The notes under the pieces were generated by a model. It searched no databases. It saw only the letters and a program-made list of their open reading frames with translations, and had not been told where the DNA came from. Made by a program: the position numbers and the translations under genes. A stretch of DNA of 41,824 bases from a virus: positions 1 to 41,824 of the IMG/VR virus record IMGVR_UViG_3300037264_003785, one strand, 5' to 3'. This document shows, piece by piece, positions 206-41,117 of this stretch. Numbering within the stretch: the first letter of the stretch is position 1; each line of letters starts with the position of its first letter.

Positions 206-720
206 CACGCGCCAAGCCGTACGATTGGAACACGCTCAAGGCCGACTACATACTGGGCGAACACGAAAGCGTGGCCAGTTATTTCGAGGCGAAGCACCCC
301 GAAATCACCAGCGACACCTACGAGAAAAAGACCAAGGGCTGGCGGGACGAGCGCAGGTTGTACACGGCGAAAGCGGCGGCCAAGGCACTAGAGAAGGCCG
401 CGAACAAGCGGGCGGACATGCTGGCCAGGCACGCGGCCGCGGGCCAACTGCTGCAAACGGTGGGGCTGAACGCCCTGGTGGACCAGGCCACGGGCAAGGT
501 GCGGGACGGGATGACACCCGATAACCCGAAACAGGCCGCGGACATTATCAAAGCCGGGGCGGATATAGAGCGCGAGGCGCTGCTGTCCGAGGACGCGGCC
601 ACGGGCCTGCCGGCCGTGGACCTTGCCGTGGGGGTAGAACTTGGACCCGATGACATTAAGCAAATCCGAATTTTTGCGAGAGCCTACGGCCGCCGCAAAG
701 CACTGGGCGGAGCGCCTTGA
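202..720 (+). CDS. terS: Terminase small subunit (probable)
   Basis: A 172-residue protein that would recognise phage DNA and present it to the large terminase. The N-terminal ~50 residues (KPYDWNTLKADYILGEHESV) look like a helix-turn-helix DNA-binding segment. A Lys/Ala-rich helical middle (about 50-90) suits oligomerisation, and the C-terminal segment would contact the large subunit. The frame is open upstream to 58, but the ATG at 202 is chosen because it forms an ATGA junction with the preceding gene. It lies directly before the large terminase and overlaps it by 71 bases. The call rests on position, length and the helix-turn-helix-like start, since small terminases are poorly conserved. 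Confidence 0.7.
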   Translation: MTRAKPYDWNTLKADYILGEHESVASYFEAKHPEITSDTYEKKTKGWRDERRLYTAKAAAKALEKAANKRADMLARHAAAGQLLQTVGLNALVDQATGKVRDGMTPDNPKQAADIIKAGADIEREALLSEDAATGLPAVDLAVGVELGPDDIKQIRIFARAYGRRKALGGAP

Positions 721-2251
721 CCCGCTAGTGTGGGGCCTGCACCACGTGCGGGTGGTGGACGGGCACCCGTTTGAGTTCGTGGATTTTCCCTTCCTGGTGG
801 ACATATACCAGGACGACAACCCGCGCCTGGTGATCCAAAAGGGCGCCCAGTTAGGCGTGACGGTGTGCGCCCTGGTCCGCATGGCCCACCGGTCCGGTGT
901 CCTGGGCCGGTCCTGTATTTACTTTTTCCCGAACGACAACGCGATCACCGCTTTCGTGCAGGGCCGGTTCGATCCGTTCGTGCGTGAGAACCCTGACGTT
1001 CGCCGGTTGATCCCCAGCCGGTACGCTGACAATACCCGCCTCAAGCGCATGGGCCAGGGGTTCGCCCACTTCCTGGGCATGAAGGGCCGAACCCAAAAAC
1101 TATCGACACCCGCGGACGCCATTTTCTTTGATGAATTGGACGCCATGACTAACGAGCGCGACATATCGGTGGCCAAGGAAAGGACGGCCGCCAGCAAAAC
1201 ACCCGAGGACATGCGCCTGTCCACGCCCACCGTGCCGGGTTACGGTATCAGCCGGGAGTTCGAAGCCAGCGACCAGAAAAATTGGGTGATGAAATGCCAG
1301 CACTGCGGGCACCAGAACGAGGCCGGGCACCTGCAGTTCCCGAAATGCGTGGAAGCCGGGGTCCTGGGCTGCGCCAAGTGCAGCAAGGCCCTGGACGTGC
1401 GCAAAGGAGAGTGGGTGGCCAAGTTCCCCGGGCGGTCCGTGTCGGGCTATTGGGTGCCGCGGTTTATCAGCCCACGCGCGAACTACGTGACAATATTGGA
1501 CGAATACCGGCACACCATGAATCTGCAGAACTTCTACAACTCCACCCTGGGCATGCCGTACGCGGACAGCGAAACGGCGATCACGGCCGCCCACGTCCTG
1601 ACCCTGTGCGGTGGCGAACCCATGGCCACGGCAGCAACCGGGTGTACAATGGGCCTGGACGTGGGGAGCGTGCTGCACGTGGTGGTGTCCGCACCAGGGA
1701 AGCACCGCATGCGCCGCCTGGTGTGGGCCGGCGAGGTGACCTGGGCGCAGGCCGACCAACTGGTGCAGCGGTTCGGCGTGAAGCGGTTCGCCATTGACGC
1801 CCTGCCCGAACAGCACGCAGCGCGCGAGTTCGTTATGCGGAACAGATCGAAAGGGTGGCTGGTGTTCTACTCGCACACCCAGCGCGGGTCCTACGCGTGG
1901 AACGATGAAGCCCGCACCGTGACGGTGAACCGCACGGAAAGCCTGGACGCCAGCCAGCGCCTGCTGCGGGACAGCCAGTACGAGTTCCCGCGCCGGTGTG
2001 ACGTTATCGAAACCGTGGCGCGGCACTGCGCGGCCCTGGCACGCAAACAAGAGGTGGCAGAGCAAACAGGGGAGGTCTCGCACGTGTACGTGCGGACCGA
2101 GGCGGACCACTACCGACAGGCGCTGAACTACGACATGCTGTGCTGGGACACCGGCACCGTGCCGACAACGCGCGGCGGGGTGCTAAAACTGAACGAGGCC
2201 ATGCTGTCCATGACCGGCGGCGGGCGAAAGGTGAAGGTGCGGAAATGGTAA
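650..2251 (+). CDS. terL: Terminase large subunit (GpA-like ATPase/nuclease)
   Basis: A 533-residue packaging motor that uses ATP to drive DNA into the prohead and cuts the concatemer. A Walker A-like motif (KGAQLGVT, about 64-71) and a Walker B motif with the catalytic Glu (AIFFDELD, about 157-164) mark the ATPase. A zinc ribbon follows (CQHC at 216-219, CAKC at 241-244), a feature of the lambda GpA family. The RNase H-like nuclease starts at GLDVGS (Asp about 337), with a further candidate metal ligand in AIDALPE (about 383). The ATG at 650 is the first ATG in frame, with only a distant GGGGGT as ribosome site, and a TTG at 641 is an alternative. The 71-base overlap with the small terminase is unusually long. 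Confidence 0.93.
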   Translation: MTLSKSEFLREPTAAAKHWAERLDPLVWGLHHVRVVDGHPFEFVDFPFLVDIYQDDNPRLVIQKGAQLGVTVCALVRMAHRSGVLGRSCIYFFPNDNAITAFVQGRFDPFVRENPDVRRLIPSRYADNTRLKRMGQGFAHFLGMKGRTQKLSTPADAIFFDELDAMTNERDISVAKERTAASKTPEDMRLSTPTVPGYGISREFEASDQKNWVMKCQHCGHQNEAGHLQFPKCVEAGVLGCAKCSKALDVRKGEWVAKFPGRSVSGYWVPRFISPRANYVTILDEYRHTMNLQNFYNSTLGMPYADSETAITAAHVLTLCGGEPMATAATGCTMGLDVGSVLHVVVSAPGKHRMRRLVWAGEVTWAQADQLVQRFGVKRFAIDALPEQHAAREFVMRNRSKGWLVFYSHTQRGSYAWNDEARTVTVNRTESLDASQRLLRDSQYEFPRRCDVIETVARHCAALARKQEVAEQTGEVSHVYVRTEADHYRQALNYDMLCWDTGTVPTTRGGVLKLNEAMLSMTGGGRKVKVRKW

Positions 2252-14501: not shown

Positions 14502-14945
14502 ATGAAGGACGAAACGAAGCAGCAGCCCGCGACACCGGACGCGGACGCCATGGCGAAACTGACCAAGGCGCCCGTGTCCTACACGATGGAACTGGCGGGC
14601 CAGCCGGTCGAGTGCTGGCTGGCACCGCTGACATACCAGGAACGAATCCACGTCAACGCGTCCGCGAACGAGGCGTACCGGGTCCTGGTGGAGAACGGCG
14701 CCGAACACAAGGACGCCCTGTCCGCCGCGACTATCGCCATTATGACCACGACCGCCTTCTATTCCATGCGCAGCGGTCCCCACCCTGGCAGCCCGCGACT
14801 GTTCAAGACCACCGCCGAGGTGACCCTGGTGCCCTTTGACCAGGTGGGCGCGGCCATGGAACGGCAGGCCACCGAGTTTTCGCTGACCGAGGACGAACTG
14901 GGAAACTCTTTGCGGGCAAGGGTTACTACCTCCACAACGCCCTGA
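14502..14945 (+). CDS. Tail assembly chaperone, short form (gpG-like)
   Basis: A 147-residue protein. It corresponds to lambda gpG: a chaperone that coats the tape measure and recruits tube protein. The sequence is mainly helical (LTYQERIHVNASANEAYRVL, SAATIAIMTTTAFYSM). It follows an AAGGAGGCGAA ribosome site and lies between tube and tape measure. The last ~12 codons after the GGGAAAC slip site are replaced in the frameshifted form. Like gpG, the normal form should be far more abundant than the extended one. Confidence 0.85.
   Translation: MKDETKQQPATPDADAMAKLTKAPVSYTMELAGQPVECWLAPLTYQERIHVNASANEAYRVLVENGAEHKDALSAATIAIMTTTAFYSMRSGPHPGSPRLFKTTAEVTLVPFDQVGAAMERQATEFSLTEDELGNSLRARVTTSTTP
14900..14906 (+). 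promoter_or_regulatory. -1 ribosomal frameshift slip site GGGAAAC
   Basis: The heptamer G GGA AAC is in the correct phase of the chaperone gene (GGA begins 399 bases after its ATG). Both tRNAs can re-pair after a one-base backward slip. A weak hairpin, GGGC (14914-14917) with GCCC (14939-14942), begins 7 bases downstream, at a spacing suited to a stimulatory element. The -1 frame then stays open for 72 codons up to the start of the tape measure. Confidence 0.9.
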
Positions 14946-15124
14946 CCCTTGCCCAAGAATTTCCCGGGCTTTCGCCGTTCGGTGCCAGGTCCACCATGGA
15001 CCTGACGGAACACCAGGTCCACGCCATAGTGGGGTGGACCCAGCACCGCGCCGTTCAGAAAAAGAAGGCGGACGCCGCCGCCCGTGGCGGGATCCACCTT
15101 GACGCCGGTGACCTTGGGGAGTGA
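14906..15124 (+). CDS. Tail assembly chaperone, frameshift extension (gpT-like)
   Basis: This is the -1 frame read after the slip at 14900-14906, giving a total product of 207 residues (135 + 72). The extension contains GYYLHNALTLAQEFPGL and ends in a Lys/Ala-rich stretch (AVQKKKADAAARGG). It has no independent start signal, since its only ATG lies at 14998 without a clear ribosome site. Its stop is four bases before the tape-measure ATG. In lambda the T part of gpGT binds tube subunits while G binds the tape measure, and the same division is expected here. Confidence 0.88.
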   Translation, partial: LFAGKGYYLHNALTLAQEFPGLSPFGARSTMDLTEHQVHAIVGWTQHRAVQKKKADAAARGGIHLDAGDLGE

Positions 15125-30544: not shown

Positions 30545-30580
30545 AAGGCCCGGGCCGGGTGGCCTGGGCCTTTTCTTTTT
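30545..30580 (+). terminator. Rho-independent terminator of early operon
   Basis: AAGGCCCGGGCC (30545-30556) pairs with GGCCTGGGCCTT (30561-30572): 12 base pairs with one G-U, a 4-base loop and a TTTTCTTTTT tract. A strong terminator for the P1/P2 transcripts, placed 14 bases after the last early gene. Confidence 0.92.
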
Positions 30581-30608: not shown

Positions 30609-30672
30609 GGCGGGTACCTGCCGGTGTGTCCGCGCCGGCCGCCGATCCTTTCCGTGGTGCCCGCCTTTTTTT
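30609..30672 (+). terminator. Second terminator-like structure or small RNA 3' end
   Basis: GGCGGGTACC (30609-30618) pairs with GGTGCCCGCC (30656-30665), 10 base pairs with one wobble, followed by seven T (30666-30672). The 37-base loop holds an internal CCGG/CCGG stem. The loop is long for a simple terminator, so it may be the terminated end of a small RNA or a back-up stop. Confidence 0.55.
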
Positions 30673-30673
30673 A

Positions 30674-30703
30674 TTTACACGCACGAAGCCCGCGAGGTAT
30701 ATT
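30674..30703 (+). promoter_or_regulatory. Sigma70-like promoter of replication module
   Basis: TTTACA (30674-30679), an 18-base spacer, then TATATT (30698-30703), directly after the T-run of the structure at 30609-30672. A start near 30710 would give a leader of about 155 bases before the initiator GTG. The boxes match 5/6 and 5/6 of the consensus. It overlaps nothing coding. Confidence 0.6.
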
Positions 30704-30737
30704 TTCGCCATGGCCTACGTGCGAAACGGTCAAAATA

Positions 30738-30864
30738 ACCCCGGGATTTTTGGGGGGTGCGCTGGGCGCCGGAAGGTGCCGGCAGGGCGGGGATTGAATC
30801 CTTGCCCTGTTCGCAACAGTGCCACCCTCAAGCGTCCTGGGGTTTTTTATTTTCAGGGGGTCCA
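30738..30864 (+). ncRNA. Structured leader RNA upstream of replication initiator
   Basis: Visible pairings: P1 CCCCGGGA (30739-30746) with TCCTGGGG (30835-30842), followed by T6; P2 GGGGGTG (30753-30759) with CACCCTC (30823-30829); P3 GGCGCC-GGAA-GGTGCC (30765-30780, a GNRA loop); P4 30782-30788 with 30804-30810, plus GGAT/ATCC inside. A rival hairpin (CTGTT 30807-30811 with AACAG 30815-30819) excludes the outer P4 stem. ACCCC (30738-30742) could instead pair with GGGGT (30857-30861) at the ribosome site of the initiator. This is the logic of a regulatory switch. No named class is recognised. Confidence 0.55.
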
Positions 30865-31749
30865 GTGAAACCGAAAAAAGACGCCGCGTTATCCGTTCCC
30901 AAGGGCTGGACTTTCGGCCCGATCCCGTCCGAGGTCCTAGAGTCTGACCTGTCAGAGCATGCGAAAATCACGGTCGGGGCGATCCTGTACCACGCCTGGG
31001 ACGGTGGCCCGTGCTGGCCTGGTACTGACCGCCTGGCCCGGCTGACCTCCACCCACGTGCGGACGGTCCTGCGGGCTATCAAGGAACTGGAAACGCACGA
31101 GCCGCCCTTCCTGCTGGTGGAACGCCGGCCTGGTCAAACGTCCCAGTATCGGTTTTTGTCGCATGGCACCCATGACACACAGTCACGGGTTACCACCACC
31201 ACCCCTGCCCCACAGTCACCCCCACCAGTGCCCCACAGTCACCAGGGTGGTGACCCACAGTCACACGAACTAGATACATTAACGAGATCCAATAAACGAG
31301 AGGCCGCGGCTGCGCCAGCGGGTCCCCTTCCGACCAATCCCACCCTGAACCCTACAGCCTTCACGGCCTGGTACTGCGAACAGTACCAGCAAAAGTTCGG
31401 CGTCAAATACGCCCACGGCGGCGCGAAGGACATGCTGGCCGTGAAGCGCCTGCTGGCCACGTACGGCGAAGGAAAGGCCCGGGACCTGGTGACGTTTGCC
31501 ATGTCCTGCGGGGACCAGTTCTACCGGCGCGTCAGTTCGTCCCTGTGCGGGCTGGTCAGCCAGGCAGCCAGGATCGCGGCACTGCAGGCCGAAACGACAC
31601 CAGCAAAACGGAAGGCGGGGGAGGTACCATTGAACCCACCGCGGATATGGCAGCACGAAGGGAAGGTGTACCGGTTGAAGGGGTGGCCACGTTATGAAGC
31701 GGACAACGGGGCCGTGTTACCCGAGGACCTGGTGCAGCGGTTCAGTTAA
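30865..31749 (+). CDS. Replication initiator (lambda O-like)
   Basis: A 294-residue protein that would bind the phage origin and recruit the helicase loader. Residues ~32-90 form a winged helix-turn-helix (ILYHAWDGGPCWPGTDRLAR, then STHVRTVLRAIKELE). Residues ~100-150 are a low-complexity linker (TTTTPAPQSPPPVPHSHQ). The rest (about 155-260) is helical and would contact the loader. The gene contains four iterons within the linker-coding DNA, as lambda O does. Start at GTG 30865 is preferred (CAGGGGGTCC site); the frame is open upstream through the leader RNA. The loader gene follows after 17 bases. Confidence 0.78.
   Translation: MKPKKDAALSVPKGWTFGPIPSEVLESDLSEHAKITVGAILYHAWDGGPCWPGTDRLARLTSTHVRTVLRAIKELETHEPPFLLVERRPGQTSQYRFLSHGTHDTQSRVTTTTPAPQSPPPVPHSHQGGDPQSHELDTLTRSNKREAAAAPAGPLPTNPTLNPTAFTAWYCEQYQQKFGVKYAHGGAKDMLAVKRLLATYGEGKARDLVTFAMSCGDQFYRRVSSSLCGLVSQAARIAALQAETTPAKRKAGEVPLNPPRIWQHEGKVYRLKGWPRYEADNGAVLPEDLVQRFS
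31178..31264 (+). repeat. Four CACAGTCAC iterons
   Basis: Exact 9-base direct repeats at 31178-31186, 31211-31219, 31234-31242 and 31256-31264. I noticed no further copy elsewhere in the window. Three of the four are preceded by CC. Confidence 0.9.
31178..31303. other. Predicted replication origin (iterons plus AT-rich tract)
   Basis: Four direct copies of CACAGTCAC lie at 31178, 31211, 31234 and 31256, spaced 33, 23 and 22 bases, so mostly about two helical turns. An AT-rich segment (31265-31303, with ACTAGATACATTAACGAG) follows immediately, a candidate unwinding element. The layout copies lambda ori within the O gene. The four sites code for the linker of the initiator. Confidence 0.75.
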
Positions 31750-31766: not shown

Positions 31767-32633
31767 ATGGAATACGGAACGGTGGAGGCTGGGACGTTAG
31801 AACACGCCCAGCAGGTGGCCGACCTGATAAAGTGCCCGGCAGTGGTGGACTTTATCAAGGTGGCCGGCAGGAACTACAACAAGCCGCGGGCATGCGATGA
31901 TTGTGGGGAGTTCTACCGCGCACCCGATGACGGTTTTCAGGGCGCGCCTGGCGGGTATTTTGGGAACACGCCCGGGTGGTGCTTTTGTACGGCGTGCGGT
32001 CACCGCCGCCTGAAAAAGGCGTTCGGGATCCCGGTGAACTACATGACCGCCCAGCCCGCCGATTTTTCCGAGTACACGGCCGCCGACTGGCAGCGGTTCA
32101 TGGACCGCGGCCAGGTGGTCACCGGTCCAATCGGTACGGGAAAAACCCACTTCCTTTACGCGCTGTTGAACGAACACCTGCGCACGGGTGAGCGCCGGTT
32201 GCGGTTCGTGGACTATCACACCATGACGCGCAGCATGCGCGCCGCGTACAAGCCGCCGGCGTACCGATCCGAGGAACAAATCGTGCAGGAGTTCGCGCGA
32301 CCGGTGGCGCTTTTCATTGATGACGTGTTCGGGTCCAAGCGCGAAGAAAAGCCCAGCGAGGACGAGGACCACGTGCTGTACGAGGTGGTGCGGGAACGGT
32401 ACGTCCTGCGCCGCAAAACCTACATTTCCAGCAACTGCAACCTGGACCAGTTAAAGGGCCTGGGGTTCAACCCGCGCACCATTTCACGCCTGAACGAACG
32501 GTGCGACATGGTGTCACTGACCGGGGCGGACCGCCGCGGCGCCCAGCCTGGCGCGCCCGGGGTGTCCGTGTTCGAACCCAGCGAAGCGGCCCGCGCCGCG
32601 TACGTGGAGGACCCGACCGAGGCCCAGCCATGA
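31767..32633 (+). CDS. DnaC-like helicase loader with zinc finger
   Basis: A 288-residue AAA+ ATPase that would load the host DnaB helicase at the origin. Walker A is GPIGTGKTH (about 120-128), Walker B ALFIDDVFGS (about 181-190), sensor-1 TYISSNCN (about 218-225), and an Arg finger is likely in SRLNERC (about 240-246). The N-terminal ~80 residues carry CDDC (43-46) and WCFCTACGH (71-79), a probable zinc site, an arrangement also present in some phage DnaC/DnaI relatives. The ATG at 31767 follows a GGAAAGGGGACAGC site. Confidence 0.9.
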   Translation: MEYGTVEAGTLEHAQQVADLIKCPAVVDFIKVAGRNYNKPRACDDCGEFYRAPDDGFQGAPGGYFGNTPGWCFCTACGHRRLKKAFGIPVNYMTAQPADFSEYTAADWQRFMDRGQVVTGPIGTGKTHFLYALLNEHLRTGERRLRFVDYHTMTRSMRAAYKPPAYRSEEQIVQEFARPVALFIDDVFGSKREEKPSEDEDHVLYEVVRERYVLRRKTYISSNCNLDQLKGLGFNPRTISRLNERCDMVSLTGADRRGAQPGAPGVSVFEPSEAARAAYVEDPTEAQP

Positions 32634-35801: not shown

Positions 35802-35830
35802 TTGTCAAACTATGAAACGGGGGATAGAAT
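35802..35830 (+). promoter_or_regulatory. Sigma70-like promoter in gap before 35832
   Basis: TTGTCA (35802-35807), a 17-base spacer, then TAGAAT (35825-35830); each box is one base from consensus. Transcription would begin near 35837, inside the frame whose first ATG is 35832. Transcripts from it would therefore start translation at the ATG at 35850 (AGAGGACGG site) or serve only downstream genes. Confidence 0.62.
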
Positions 35831-38198: not shown

Positions 38199-38756
38199 GT
38201 GATCACGTCACAAGGCGCACCCTGGCTGGACCTGATGGAACTGGTGGCAAAGTGGCCGGCAGGCTACCGAGTTCTGGAAATCGGCACGAAGCAAAGCATG
38301 CCCGGGAGGTCCACGCACAGCGCGGCCAAGTTCCCAGCGGCCGGCCAGTACGTGAAGGCCGACTACCAGGACGGCGCGGACGTGGACGTGGTAGCCGACA
38401 TTATGAAACTGTCCGAGGTGTTCCCGCCGGGGTCCTTTGACCTGGTGGTGGCGAACTCCACGTTCGAACACGTGGCCAAGCCGTGGGTGGCCGCGGACGA
38501 AATCCACCGTGTCCTGTCACCCGGTGGCCTGTGTTTTGTCCAGACCCACCAGAGTTTCCCGCTGCACGCGTACCCGTTCGACTACTGGCGGTTCACGTGC
38601 GAAGCCATGGAGGTGCTGTTCTACGCTCCCAAGTGGCGGACCGTGCGGACCGCGTACGAGTTCCCGTGCCAGGTGGTGAGCGAACGGGACCCACAGGGCA
38701 AAAACCACCCGGCTTTCCTGAACGTGGCAATCCTGACCGAAAGGGCGAACGCATGA
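38199..38756 (+). CDS. SAM-dependent methyltransferase (class I)
   Basis: A 185-residue class I methyltransferase. Motif I is GYRVLEIGTKQSMPG (about 18-32), the acidic loop KADYQDGADVDVVADI, then FDLVVANSTFEHV (motif IV-like, about 80-92) and RVLSPGGLCFVQTH (motif VI). This is the type 11 pattern that methylates small molecules, sugars or proteins rather than DNA. Start at GTG 38199 gives a short gap after the DUF115-like gene. It overlaps the glycosyltransferase by 4 bases. Confidence 0.88.
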   Translation: MITSQGAPWLDLMELVAKWPAGYRVLEIGTKQSMPGRSTHSAAKFPAAGQYVKADYQDGADVDVVADIMKLSEVFPPGSFDLVVANSTFEHVAKPWVAADEIHRVLSPGGLCFVQTHQSFPLHAYPFDYWRFTCEAMEVLFYAPKWRTVRTAYEFPCQVVSERDPQGKNHPAFLNVAILTERANA

Positions 38757-39787
38757 AGGCAAAACTACTGGCCGTGTACCCGGCCGCGCAGGTGGTGGTG
38801 CAGAACTACCGAGGGGAGGGCGTGCTGCAGTACCTGCGCCGCGCGGACCCTGACGTGGAGGTGATCCACCCGCAGGGCGGTGAGGTGTGGCGGGACCTGA
38901 TACGGGCGGACGCGGTGTACTTCATGCGCACCACGGACCCGGCCCACGTAAACATGGCACGCGTGGCAAAAACCATGGGCGTCCCCGTGTGGGTGGACAT
39001 GGACGACAACCTGTTCGAAATCGAACCCGACAACCCGGCGTACGGCGGATACACCGAGGACGTGCTGGGCAGGCTGGCCACCATGCTGGACCTGGCGGAC
39101 GTGGTGACGGTCAGCACCGAGGACCTGGCCGCGCAACTGCAGGAGAAGCACCCAAACACCCGGTTCGAAGTGGTGCCGAACGCCCTGGACACGTACGCGT
39201 TCCGCGACCTGGGCACCATGCCCAAGGCAGGCCCGCGGCACTTTATCACCTGGCGCGGTGGCGGGTCCCATATCGCGGACCTGCTGTGGCACACCCCGGC
39301 GTTCCACAAGTTCGACCAGGTGGAGGACCCGCGGTGGGGCGTGCATTTTATCGGGTTCAATCCGTCCTGGCTGACCGATCCGCCGCCCTGGCTGCCGCAG
39401 CAGCGCACCCCGCGTTACTTTTTCACCCCGTACGTGCCGCACTTTTACACGTTCGTGCGTCAGTTCCGCGAAACGCTGGCGCCCTGGGCGCACGTGGTGC
39501 CGTTGAAGGACAGCAGGTTCAACCGGGCCAAATCCGCCATATCAGCGATCGAGGGCATATACGCCGGCGCAGTGCCGATCGTCCCCGCGTGGCGGGAATG
39601 GGAAATCCCGGGCGCGTTCACCTACAGCACCACGGACGGCCTGGCCGCCAGCATGCAGGCCGCGGCTGCCCTGACCGAGATCGAACGCCGGCAGCGGTGG
39701 GAACGGGCCGTCCAGTGGGTGAAGGACGCCCGCAGCATGGACGCCGTGAACCGCCTGCGCCTGCAGGTCCTGGCGTCCCTGTTGTGA
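38753..39787 (+). CDS. Glycosyltransferase (GT4-like)
   Basis: A 344-residue protein. The N-terminal half contains YRGEGVLQYLRRADPDVEV and VPVWVDMDDNLFEIEPD (about 80-97); the C-terminal half has EVVPNALDTYAF, then KSAISAIEGIYAGAVPIV (about 262-279), where the E...G.P pattern matches the donor-binding part of GT4 enzymes. It would move a nucleotide-activated sugar onto an acceptor: DNA base, virion protein or host surface. The true start is the ATG at 38753, within the end of the methyltransferase gene. Neighbours point to one pathway. Confidence 0.8.
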   Translation: MKAKLLAVYPAAQVVVQNYRGEGVLQYLRRADPDVEVIHPQGGEVWRDLIRADAVYFMRTTDPAHVNMARVAKTMGVPVWVDMDDNLFEIEPDNPAYGGYTEDVLGRLATMLDLADVVTVSTEDLAAQLQEKHPNTRFEVVPNALDTYAFRDLGTMPKAGPRHFITWRGGGSHIADLLWHTPAFHKFDQVEDPRWGVHFIGFNPSWLTDPPPWLPQQRTPRYFFTPYVPHFYTFVRQFRETLAPWAHVVPLKDSRFNRAKSAISAIEGIYAGAVPIVPAWREWEIPGAFTYSTTDGLAASMQAAAALTEIERRQRWERAVQWVKDARSMDAVNRLRLQVLASLL

Positions 39788-39903
39788 GGCGCCCGCGTGG
39801 GGTCCCCGAGGACCGTGACGCGTTCGCCGCCGGGATCCTGGTGGGCGTGGCTGGGCTGTGTGCTGTGCTGTGGCTGTACGAAATCGCGCGGAGGCTATTA
39901 TGA
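39784..39903 (+). CDS. Small single-pass membrane protein
   Basis: A 39-residue protein starting at GTG 39784 in a GTGA overlap with the glycosyltransferase. After ~14 charged residues a hydrophobic segment (FAAGILVGVAGLCAVLWLYE) spans the membrane, and the end is short and basic (IARRLL). It overlaps the next ATG by 4 bases (ATGA). Function unknown; it resembles the 44-residue protein at 41114. Confidence 0.6.
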   Translation: MRRPRGVPEDRDAFAAGILVGVAGLCAVLWLYEIARRLL

Positions 39904-41117
39904 CGGAACAGCGGCACCTGGAATACAGGCCCACGGACAGCCTGAAACTGTGGGACGAAAACCCACGGGATAACGACAAGGCCGTGCCAGAGGTGGCGGA
40001 AAGCATAAAGCGGTACGGATTCCTGGTGCCCGTGGTGGTGAACGGGGAAGGGATGGTCATGGCCGGGAACACGCGACTCAAGGCCGCCCTGCGCCTGGGC
40101 CTGCGCGAGGTGCCGGTGATCCTGGCGGACCACCTGACCGCGGACGAACTGCGCGAGTTCGCGCTGGTGGACAACAAGACCAGTGAACTCGCCACCTGGT
40201 CCCTGCCCGGCCTGGCGGCCGTGCTGAAAACCCTGACCCCTGCCAGCCAGGTACGCCTGCCGGGGTTCACCGCGGACGAACTCAAGCAACTGGCGGCCCG
40301 TGCCACCCCGCCGGCCGAGGACCCCGCAGAGGATACCGAACCGCCGCCGCCCGTCATGGGCAAGCAAGCCAAGGCCACCACCCAGCCGGGGGAGGTGTTC
40401 CGCCTGGGATCCCACGTGCTGGTGTGCGCGGACAGCCTGACGGATGACGCCCTGGACCACGTACTGGAAGGGGACGGCCCGGCCATGGTGCTGACCGACC
40501 CGCCGTTCGCCATATACGGCAGCAGCACCGGCGTCAGTTCAAACGTGGCGGACGACAAAATGGTGCGGCCCTTCTTTCGCCAGTTATTCCTGCGCATTTA
40601 TAACCTGCTCCCGCCGTTCGGCCACGCGTACGTTCACTGCGACTGGCGATCGTGGGCCACGCTGTGGGACGGTGCGCGGTCCGCGAACATGTCCGCGAAG
40701 AACCTGCTGGTGTGGGACAAGCAAAGCGGCGGCCTGGGGAACAACTACGCGAACACCTACGAACTGGTGGGCTTTTTCGCCAAGCAGCCCCACGGGCAGA
40801 CGATGAAATCTTTCGAGGTGTCCGGCCAGCGCCCGGTCCACCGCCCGAACATACTGCGGTACCCGCGGGTGCGGGGCGCGGACAGGGAACACAACGCGGC
40901 CAAGCCCGTGGAAATGCTGCAGGAACTGGTCAAAAACAGCAGCGACCCGGGCCAGCGCGTGCTGGACCTGTTCGGCGGCAGCGGGTCCACGCTGATAGCC
41001 TGCGAAAAGGCGGGCCGGCGCTGTGTCACGGTAGAGATCGAGCCTGCGTGGTGTGACGTGATTATCGCCAGGTGGGAACGGCTAACAGGCCAAAAGGCGG
41101 AAAGGGTGACCCCGTGA
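39900..41117 (+). CDS. ParB-like/DNA methyltransferase fusion
   Basis: A 405-residue protein. Residues ~5-130 form a ParB-like N-terminal domain (WDENPRDND, VVVNGEGMVMAGNTRLKAA). A linker (about 136-165) precedes a methyltransferase with the catalytic LTDPPFAIYG (about 198-207) before VLDLFGGSGSTLIACEKAG (about 354-372), the AdoMet motif. That order (DPPF before FxGxG) places it in the beta class of N6-adenine or N4-cytosine enzymes. The start is ATG 39900. Phages use these to protect DNA from host restriction. The recognition site cannot be told from sequence. Confidence 0.9.
   Translation: MTEQRHLEYRPTDSLKLWDENPRDNDKAVPEVAESIKRYGFLVPVVVNGEGMVMAGNTRLKAALRLGLREVPVILADHLTADELREFALVDNKTSELATWSLPGLAAVLKTLTPASQVRLPGFTADELKQLAARATPPAEDPAEDTEPPPPVMGKQAKATTQPGEVFRLGSHVLVCADSLTDDALDHVLEGDGPAMVLTDPPFAIYGSSTGVSSNVADDKMVRPFFRQLFLRIYNLLPPFGHAYVHCDWRSWATLWDGARSANMSAKNLLVWDKQSGGLGNNYANTYELVGFFAKQPHGQTMKSFEVSGQRPVHRPNILRYPRVRGADREHNAAKPVEMLQELVKNSSDPGQRVLDLFGGSGSTLIACEKAGRRCVTVEIEPAWCDVIIARWERLTGQKAERVTP

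What the first reader, a model, noticed from the sequence alone, without database searches (positions are those of the whole stretch)
30674..30864. Possible switch RNA controlling the replication initiator
A promoter (TTTACA-N18-TATATT) is followed by a ~155-base leader with at least four stems. Two sets of pairings exclude each other: outer P4 (30782-30788/30804-30810) against the hairpin at 30807-30819, and P1 (30739-30746/30835-30842) against ACCCC pairing with the initiator ribosome site (30738-30742/30857-30861). P1 is followed by T6, so transcription and translation of the initiator could both be gated. I do not recognise a known riboswitch class. All pairings are read directly; the switching model is inference.
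Basis: partly seen in the sequence, partly recalled or inferred. Interest (0 to 1): 0.8.

Follow-up and report, generated by a model that had tools for sequence, protein, structure and literature searches.

The report
Structured RNA leader before phage initiator
An unclassified virus from sequence databases carries, between a promoter and the gene that starts its DNA replication, a very stable three-way-junction RNA ending in a transcription stop signal; it probably limits how much initiator is made, but no relative was found against which to test the proposed switching.

Summary
In detail: at 30710-30848 (+) a promoter-driven leader folds into the most significant RNA structure in the 41.8-kb virus record (rank 1 of 1668 scanned windows), and does so on the transcribed strand only (-76 vs -50 kcal/mol; 10 of 45 pairs are G-U). 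It is a long rod (P1-P2-P3) capped by a three-way junction (hairpin A with a GGAA loop, hairpin B, CGCAA), and its closing stem P1 runs straight into T6. The initiator's ribosome site follows. The initiator gene looks lambda-O-like: HTH domain, four direct iterons plus an AT-rich stretch inside the gene, then a DnaC-like loader.

All four named helices are complementary, but both named alternatives have predicted probability about 0 and cost 9-11.5 kcal/mol.

Best reading: an intrinsic-terminator attenuator, or a terminated small RNA with read-through, gating initiator synthesis and transcription across the origin. No Rfam match and no homologue were found, so covariation could not be tested. 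Real structured RNA: very likely. Regulated switch: unproven.

The parts
30545..30577 (+). Conventional intrinsic terminator (12-bp stem, TTCTTTTT) after the preceding small gene
   Evidence: Consensus scan, fold
30609..30672 (+). Second terminator-like element: 10-bp stem GGCGGGTACC/GGTGCCCGCC (30609-30618/30656-30665) closing a branched loop, then T7; insulates the promoter
   Evidence: Fold -35.0 kcal/mol, z -4.4, 0/600 shuffles; minus strand -28.8
30674..30703 (+). Promoter-like site TTTACA-18-TATATT, predicted start about A30710
   Evidence: 10/12 consensus; start position inferred from spacing
30710..30848 (+). Predicted leader RNA, about 139 nt if terminated at T6
   Evidence: Inferred from promoter and T6; z and strand asymmetry
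30737..30844 (+). P1, 11 bp: 30737-30747 with 30834-30844 (closing stem, terminator stem)
   Evidence: Fold, pair probabilities 0.72-1.0
30749..30832 (+). P2, 8 bp: 30749-30756 with 30825-30832
   Evidence: Pair probabilities 0.88-0.99
30759..30822 (+). P3, 6 bp: 30759-30764 with 30817-30822
   Evidence: Pair probabilities 0.97-1.0
30765..30780 (+). Hairpin A: GGCGCC-GGAA-GGUGCC (GNRA-type tetraloop)
   Evidence: Pair probabilities >0.99
30781..30811 (+).
   Evidence: Pair probabilities 0.56-1.0
30812..30816 (+). CGCAA, the only unpaired strand of the three-way junction
   Evidence: Fold
30738..30758 (+). H0: early alternative hairpin (CCCCGG/UUGGGG or ACCCC/GGGGU) that uses the 5' arms of P1 and P2; pre-emptor-like
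   Evidence: MFE of shorter nascent transcripts; barrier to the rod 7.5 kcal/mol
30843..30853 (+). T-tract TTTTTTATTTT directly after P1
   Evidence: Sequence; tail score nT 5.8
30855..30860 (+). Shine-Dalgarno AGGGGG of the initiator
   Evidence: Sequence
30865..31749 (+). Replication initiator gene (GTG start, 294 aa; HTH_36; PHROG 270 'replication initiation protein')
   Evidence: Pfam E 7e-9, PHROGs E 5.5e-8
31177..31264 (+). Four direct iterons (ACACAGTCAC or CCACAGTCAC) at 31177, 31210, 31233, 31255; the only + strand copies in the window
31265..31304 (+). AT-rich stretch (60% AT in a 65% GC genome) next to the iterons: likely origin unwinding region
31767..32633 (+). DnaC-like helicase loader gene
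   Evidence: PHROG 50, E 4.7e-29

Best explanation
The feature is a folded RNA leader that works as a transcription attenuator of the replication operon. RNA polymerase starts near 30710 and transcribes a rod-plus-three-way-junction RNA. When the closing stem P1 zips up as polymerase enters T6, transcription stops and a small RNA of about 139 nt is released. When P1 forms too late, polymerase reads on through the initiator gene, across the iteron origin inside it, and into the DnaC-like loader gene. P1 is delayed by an early local hairpin (H0), which ties up the 5' arms of P1 and P2 until the 3' arms emerge. The leader thus sets the level of both initiator protein and transcription over the origin. 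Shown by computation: the structure, its strand specificity, the P1-T6 arrangement, and the initiator and iteron anatomy. Inferred: that P1 terminates, that H0 makes it leaky, and that a factor regulates the balance.
For: Top-ranked, strand-specific structure with 10 G-U wobbles among 45 pairs, so the fold is kept at RNA level. P1 ends in four G-C pairs and two A-U pairs directly at T6-A-T4. The leader's only strong promoter is just upstream and insulated by two terminators; the next + strand promoter-like site is at 35802. Leader not coding-like in any frame. H0 is the local optimum while the transcript is short; the rod overtakes at about 30832-30836, when polymerase would be near T6, and the barrier is about 7.5 kcal/mol. 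Initiator with internal iterons and AT-rich stretch, then loader, resembling lambda, where transcription over the origin activates replication (PMC3985674).
Against: No homologous leader, hence no covariation evidence. No transcript data. The rod is so favoured (about 13 kcal/mol over the H0 state at 30862) that it may terminate constitutively, with no regulation. No ligand, antisense promoter or RNA-binding partner was identified. A 100-nt branched loop is unusual for an intrinsic terminator. Host and its promoter rules are unknown.
Confidence: 0.5

Rival explanations
1. A stand-alone small RNA: promoter, compact fold and terminator form a complete small-RNA gene that acts in trans (on host or phage targets or a protein), and initiator mRNA arises merely by read-through or from another promoter.
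For: Complete unit of promoter, about 139-nt very stable RNA and T-tract; rod is the overwhelming ground state with no populated alternative.
Against: No other promoter-like site on the + strand between the leader and the initiator at the scan's threshold, so the initiator appears to depend on the same transcript; no target known.
Confidence: 0.22
2. Ligand-controlled riboswitch of an unknown class, switching terminator or SD access.
For: Three-way junction with GNRA loop, 5-nt junction strand and expression platform in the usual place; no Rfam match.
Against: Both named alternatives have probability about 0 and cost 9-11.5 kcal/mol; no conservation available to define a binding site.
Confidence: 0.1
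3. Put-like cis-acting antitermination RNA: the folded leader binds RNA polymerase and makes it resistant to terminators, including its own T6.
For: Lies just after an early-type promoter, like HK022 putL; lambdoid early genes are preceded by terminators (PMC9378689).
Against: putRNA is about 70 nt with two stem-loops; here a 3-way junction inside a terminator stem. No strong + strand terminators downstream that would need antitermination.
Confidence: 0.07
4. Countertranscript-driven attenuator as in plasmids pT181 and pIP501: an antisense RNA decides between pre-emptor pairing and terminator in the rep leader.
For: Same layout: rep leader, pre-emptor-like H0, terminator-like stem before the rep start (PMC5703833).
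Against: No antisense promoter: the best minus-strand match near the leader is 8/12, at 30725, and points away from the structured core; minus strand folds much less well.
Confidence: 0.05
5. Translation-coupled attenuation: a leaderless 52-codon ORF (ATG30710 to TGA30868, overlapping the initiator GTG) melts the leader when translated.
For: ATG at the predicted start; frame open to a stop-start overlap GTGA.
Against: Codon score negative in this frame, GC3 0.62 vs 0.73-0.83 in genes; 51 open codons expected by composition in 25% of cases.
Confidence: 0.04
6. The fold acts as DNA (part of the origin) rather than RNA.
For: Lies about 330 bp from the iteron origin.
Against: Strong strand asymmetry from G-U pairs, which would be mismatches in DNA.
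Confidence: 0.02

Closest known systems
Rep-leader attenuators of plasmids pT181 / pIP501 (PMC5703833)
   Same: Structured untranslated leader of a replication initiator; terminator-like stem just before the start codon; a pre-emptor-like sequence competes for the 5' arm of that stem
   Different: Here no antisense promoter was found, the terminator stem is the overwhelming ground state, and it closes a three-way junction; phage, not plasmid
HK022 put RNA (PMC9378689)
   Same: Folded RNA near the start of an early phage transcript
   Different: put is about 70 nt with two stem-loops and binds RNA polymerase; here 115 nt, branched, ending in its own terminator-like stem; no sequence relation tested beyond Rfam and BLAST
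Lambda pR-O-P / ori-lambda (PMC3985674, PMC6022878)
   Same: Initiator gene with four iterons and an adjacent AT-rich region inside it, followed by a helicase-loader gene; transcription from upstream crosses the origin
   Different: Lambda uses N antitermination at protein-bound nut sites; here a structured leader with a terminator stands directly between promoter and initiator
Terminator-linked riboswitches, e.g. the crcB and pfl candidates (PMC2864571)
   Same: Structured 5' leader overlapping a terminator
   Different: No conserved core or ligand known; no Rfam match; single example

Membership tests
Known Rfam riboswitch / structured RNA families | Match to a covariance model | tested here: not met
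   No match at gathering thresholds in the window; at E<=10 only a chance hit outside the leader
Riboswitch (any class) | Two mutually exclusive, comparably stable states | tested here: not met
Riboswitch (any class) | Conserved ligand-binding core with compensatory changes | not testable with these tools
   No homologue found
Riboswitch (any class) | Ligand-dependent folding | not testable with these tools
   Needs probing
Intrinsic-terminator attenuator | GC-rich stem followed directly by a U-tract | tested here: met
   P1 ends at T6-A-T4
Intrinsic-terminator attenuator | Competing pairing that prevents the terminator stem | tested here: inconclusive
   H0 possible early, barrier about 7.5 kcal/mol; not favoured at full length
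Intrinsic-terminator attenuator | Measured termination and its control | not testable with these tools
   Needs transcription assay
pT181/pIP501 countertranscript attenuator | Antisense RNA promoter within the rep leader | tested here: not met
   Best minus-strand match 8/12, not over the core
put antitermination RNA | About 70-nt RNA of two stem-loops near the early promoter | tested here: not met
   Fold is a rod with three-way junction
Lambda-O-type initiator/origin | Direct iterons plus AT-rich region inside the initiator gene | tested here: met
   Four iterons and a 60% AT stretch
Lambda-O-type initiator/origin | Helicase-loader gene next to it | tested here: met
   DnaC-like gene
Lambda-O-type initiator/origin | Sequence homology to lambda O | not tested
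   Only HTH_36 and PHROG 270 matches

The most novel reading that the evidence does not exclude
A new phage RNA control element: a three-way-junction leader whose closing stem is itself the terminator and which, by a race between an early hairpin and that stem, couples a phage-made or host-made signal to both initiator synthesis and transcriptional activation of the internal replication origin.
Probability: 0.2. Interest if true: 0.75.

Novelty: new variant of a known kind. Interest (0 to 1): 0.45.

Why it matters
Phage replication initiators are usually described as controlled by repressors and by protein antiterminators. A structured leader with its own terminator between promoter and a lambda-O-like initiator would be an RNA-level brake on the commitment to replicate, with the logic known from plasmid copy control. 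The region is small enough (about 200 bp) to be tested directly by in-vitro transcription and a reporter.

Tried and rejected
Rfam at gathering and permissive thresholds: nothing. Leader DNA against phages and plasmids: nothing. Two exact patterns of the leader in IMG/VR gave only chance hits without extended similarity or model score. Initiator in IMG/VR, genomes and phages: no confirmed relative; one weak homologue in a Desulfobacterota genome (L192) has no such leader. Loader and terminase relatives: distant only, at most 38% identity for the terminase. A single-sequence covariance model over these records: one hit (G003, E 0.008) inside a protein-coding gene, without the rod, judged chance; 389 genomes of the class of a Desulfobacterales MAG: none (stricter filters, so weak matches could be lost). 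Leader-DNA hits in 13 genomes were 20-36-base chance matches, several of them to the terminator tail. A structured stretch upstream of the loader in L215 is that phage's iteron array, not a leader. Considered and rejected: leader as coding sequence, as DNA-level palindrome.

Full report
What was checked. The window is a 41,824-base IMG/VR virus record. The finding lies before a gene that starts at GTG30865 behind AGGGGG. Its product has a helix-turn-helix domain (HTH_36) and matches PHROG 270, replication initiation protein. The next gene is a DnaC-like helicase loader. A promoter-like site TTTACA-18-TATATT (10 of 12) stands at 30674-30703, one of two 10/12 sites among 13.8 kb scanned.

Structure. 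The leader folds with -80.9 kcal/mol over 136 nt, z -6.6, no shuffle as good in 200. In a scan of 150-nt windows over both strands of the record it ranks first of 1668 (z -9.4 with 20 shuffles; the mean of all windows is -0.26, sd 1.22). The minus strand at the same place folds 28 kcal/mol less well. With 600 shuffles the 115-nt core gives -76.4 (z -7.9) on the plus strand and -50.0 (z -3.4) on the minus strand. The asymmetry comes from G-U pairs, 10 of 45, so it points to RNA and not to a DNA palindrome. The frames across the leader do not look coding.

Anatomy. P1 is 11 bp, P2 8 bp, P3 6 bp, all stacked as a rod; P3 opens into hairpin A (GGAA loop) and hairpin B (14 bp), with CGCAA as the only unpaired junction strand. 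Nearly all pairs have probability above 0.9; the exceptions are end pairs. P1 runs directly into TTTTTTATTTT. A second, smaller branched terminator-like element with a near-identical tail (TTTTTTATTTACA) ends just before the promoter, and a conventional terminator lies before that.

All four helices named are complementary. But ACCCC with the ribosome site and the 30807-30819 hairpin have pairing probability of about 0; forcing them costs 9.0 and 11.5 kcal/mol. A local terminator-like hairpin CCTCA...TGGGG with the same T6 costs 18.6. So the full-length leader is not a balanced two-state switch at equilibrium.

A kinetic alternative. Folding of growing transcripts shows an early hairpin H0 that pairs the P1 5' arm with the P2 5' arm. 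It remains the better state until about 30830; the rod overtakes at 30832-30836, with an estimated barrier of 7.5 kcal/mol. With the usual 10-14 bases covered by polymerase (own knowledge), that is when polymerase reaches T6. Termination could therefore depend on a race. This is inference from energy models only.

The gated gene. Inside the initiator gene are four direct iterons at 31177, 31210, 31233 and 31255, the only plus-strand copies in the window with at most one mismatch, followed by a 60% AT stretch. Lambda has four iterons and an adjacent AT-rich region inside gene O (PMC6022878), and transcription from pR over the origin activates replication (PMC3985674). By analogy, a terminator in the leader would control both initiator supply and transcription across the origin. 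A distant phage (L215) with a related loader has the same order: an HTH-type gene with repeats in its middle, an AT-rich stretch, then the loader.

Relatives. No homologous leader was found. Rfam is silent. Leader DNA has no match in phages or plasmids, and pattern hits in IMG/VR are chance. The phage is isolated: its terminase is at best 38% identical to anything reached, mostly in Deltaproteobacteria/Desulfobacterota MAGs, and its initiator and loader have only distant relatives. The tools say that records very near the window may be left out, so close relatives could exist unseen. Hence the covariation test is open, neither passed nor failed.

Verdict. A real, strongly structured, orphan RNA leader with a terminator-like closing stem before a lambda-O-like initiator. 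The most likely role is attenuation of the replication operon (0.5). A stand-alone small RNA is the main rival (0.22). The ligand switch is possible but unsupported (0.1).

Noticed in passing
window 31177-31304: Probable replication origin inside the initiator gene: four direct iterons (CMCACAGTCAC, spacing 33/23/22) followed by an AT-rich stretch, lambda-ori style
   Followed up: partly
window 30609-30672: Second branched terminator-like element directly before the promoter; its tail TTTTTTATTTACA matches 12 of 13 bases of the leader's tail TTTTTTATTTTCA
   Followed up: partly
window 39858-41117: Fusion of a ParB N-terminal domain with an N6/N4 DNA methylase, a type widespread in phages
   Followed up: no
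window 38483-39787: Protein with a partial match to PHROG 7162, glycosyltransferase
   Followed up: no
window 14851-15100: Low folding energy on both strands (z -4.6 to -6.7) in 150-nt windows; the 201-nt fold of this stretch on the + strand is not remarkable (z -1.8)
   Followed up: partly
L215 2100-2340: A gene of another virus record, before its DnaC-like gene, holds an array of AAAGGGTCCGGG-type repeats and then an AT-rich stretch: same origin layout
   Followed up: partly
window 641-2251: Terminase (PHROG 675) whose nearest relatives reached are 36-38% identical and lie in Deltaproteobacteria/Desulfobacterales MAGs, a weak hint at the host
   Followed up: partly
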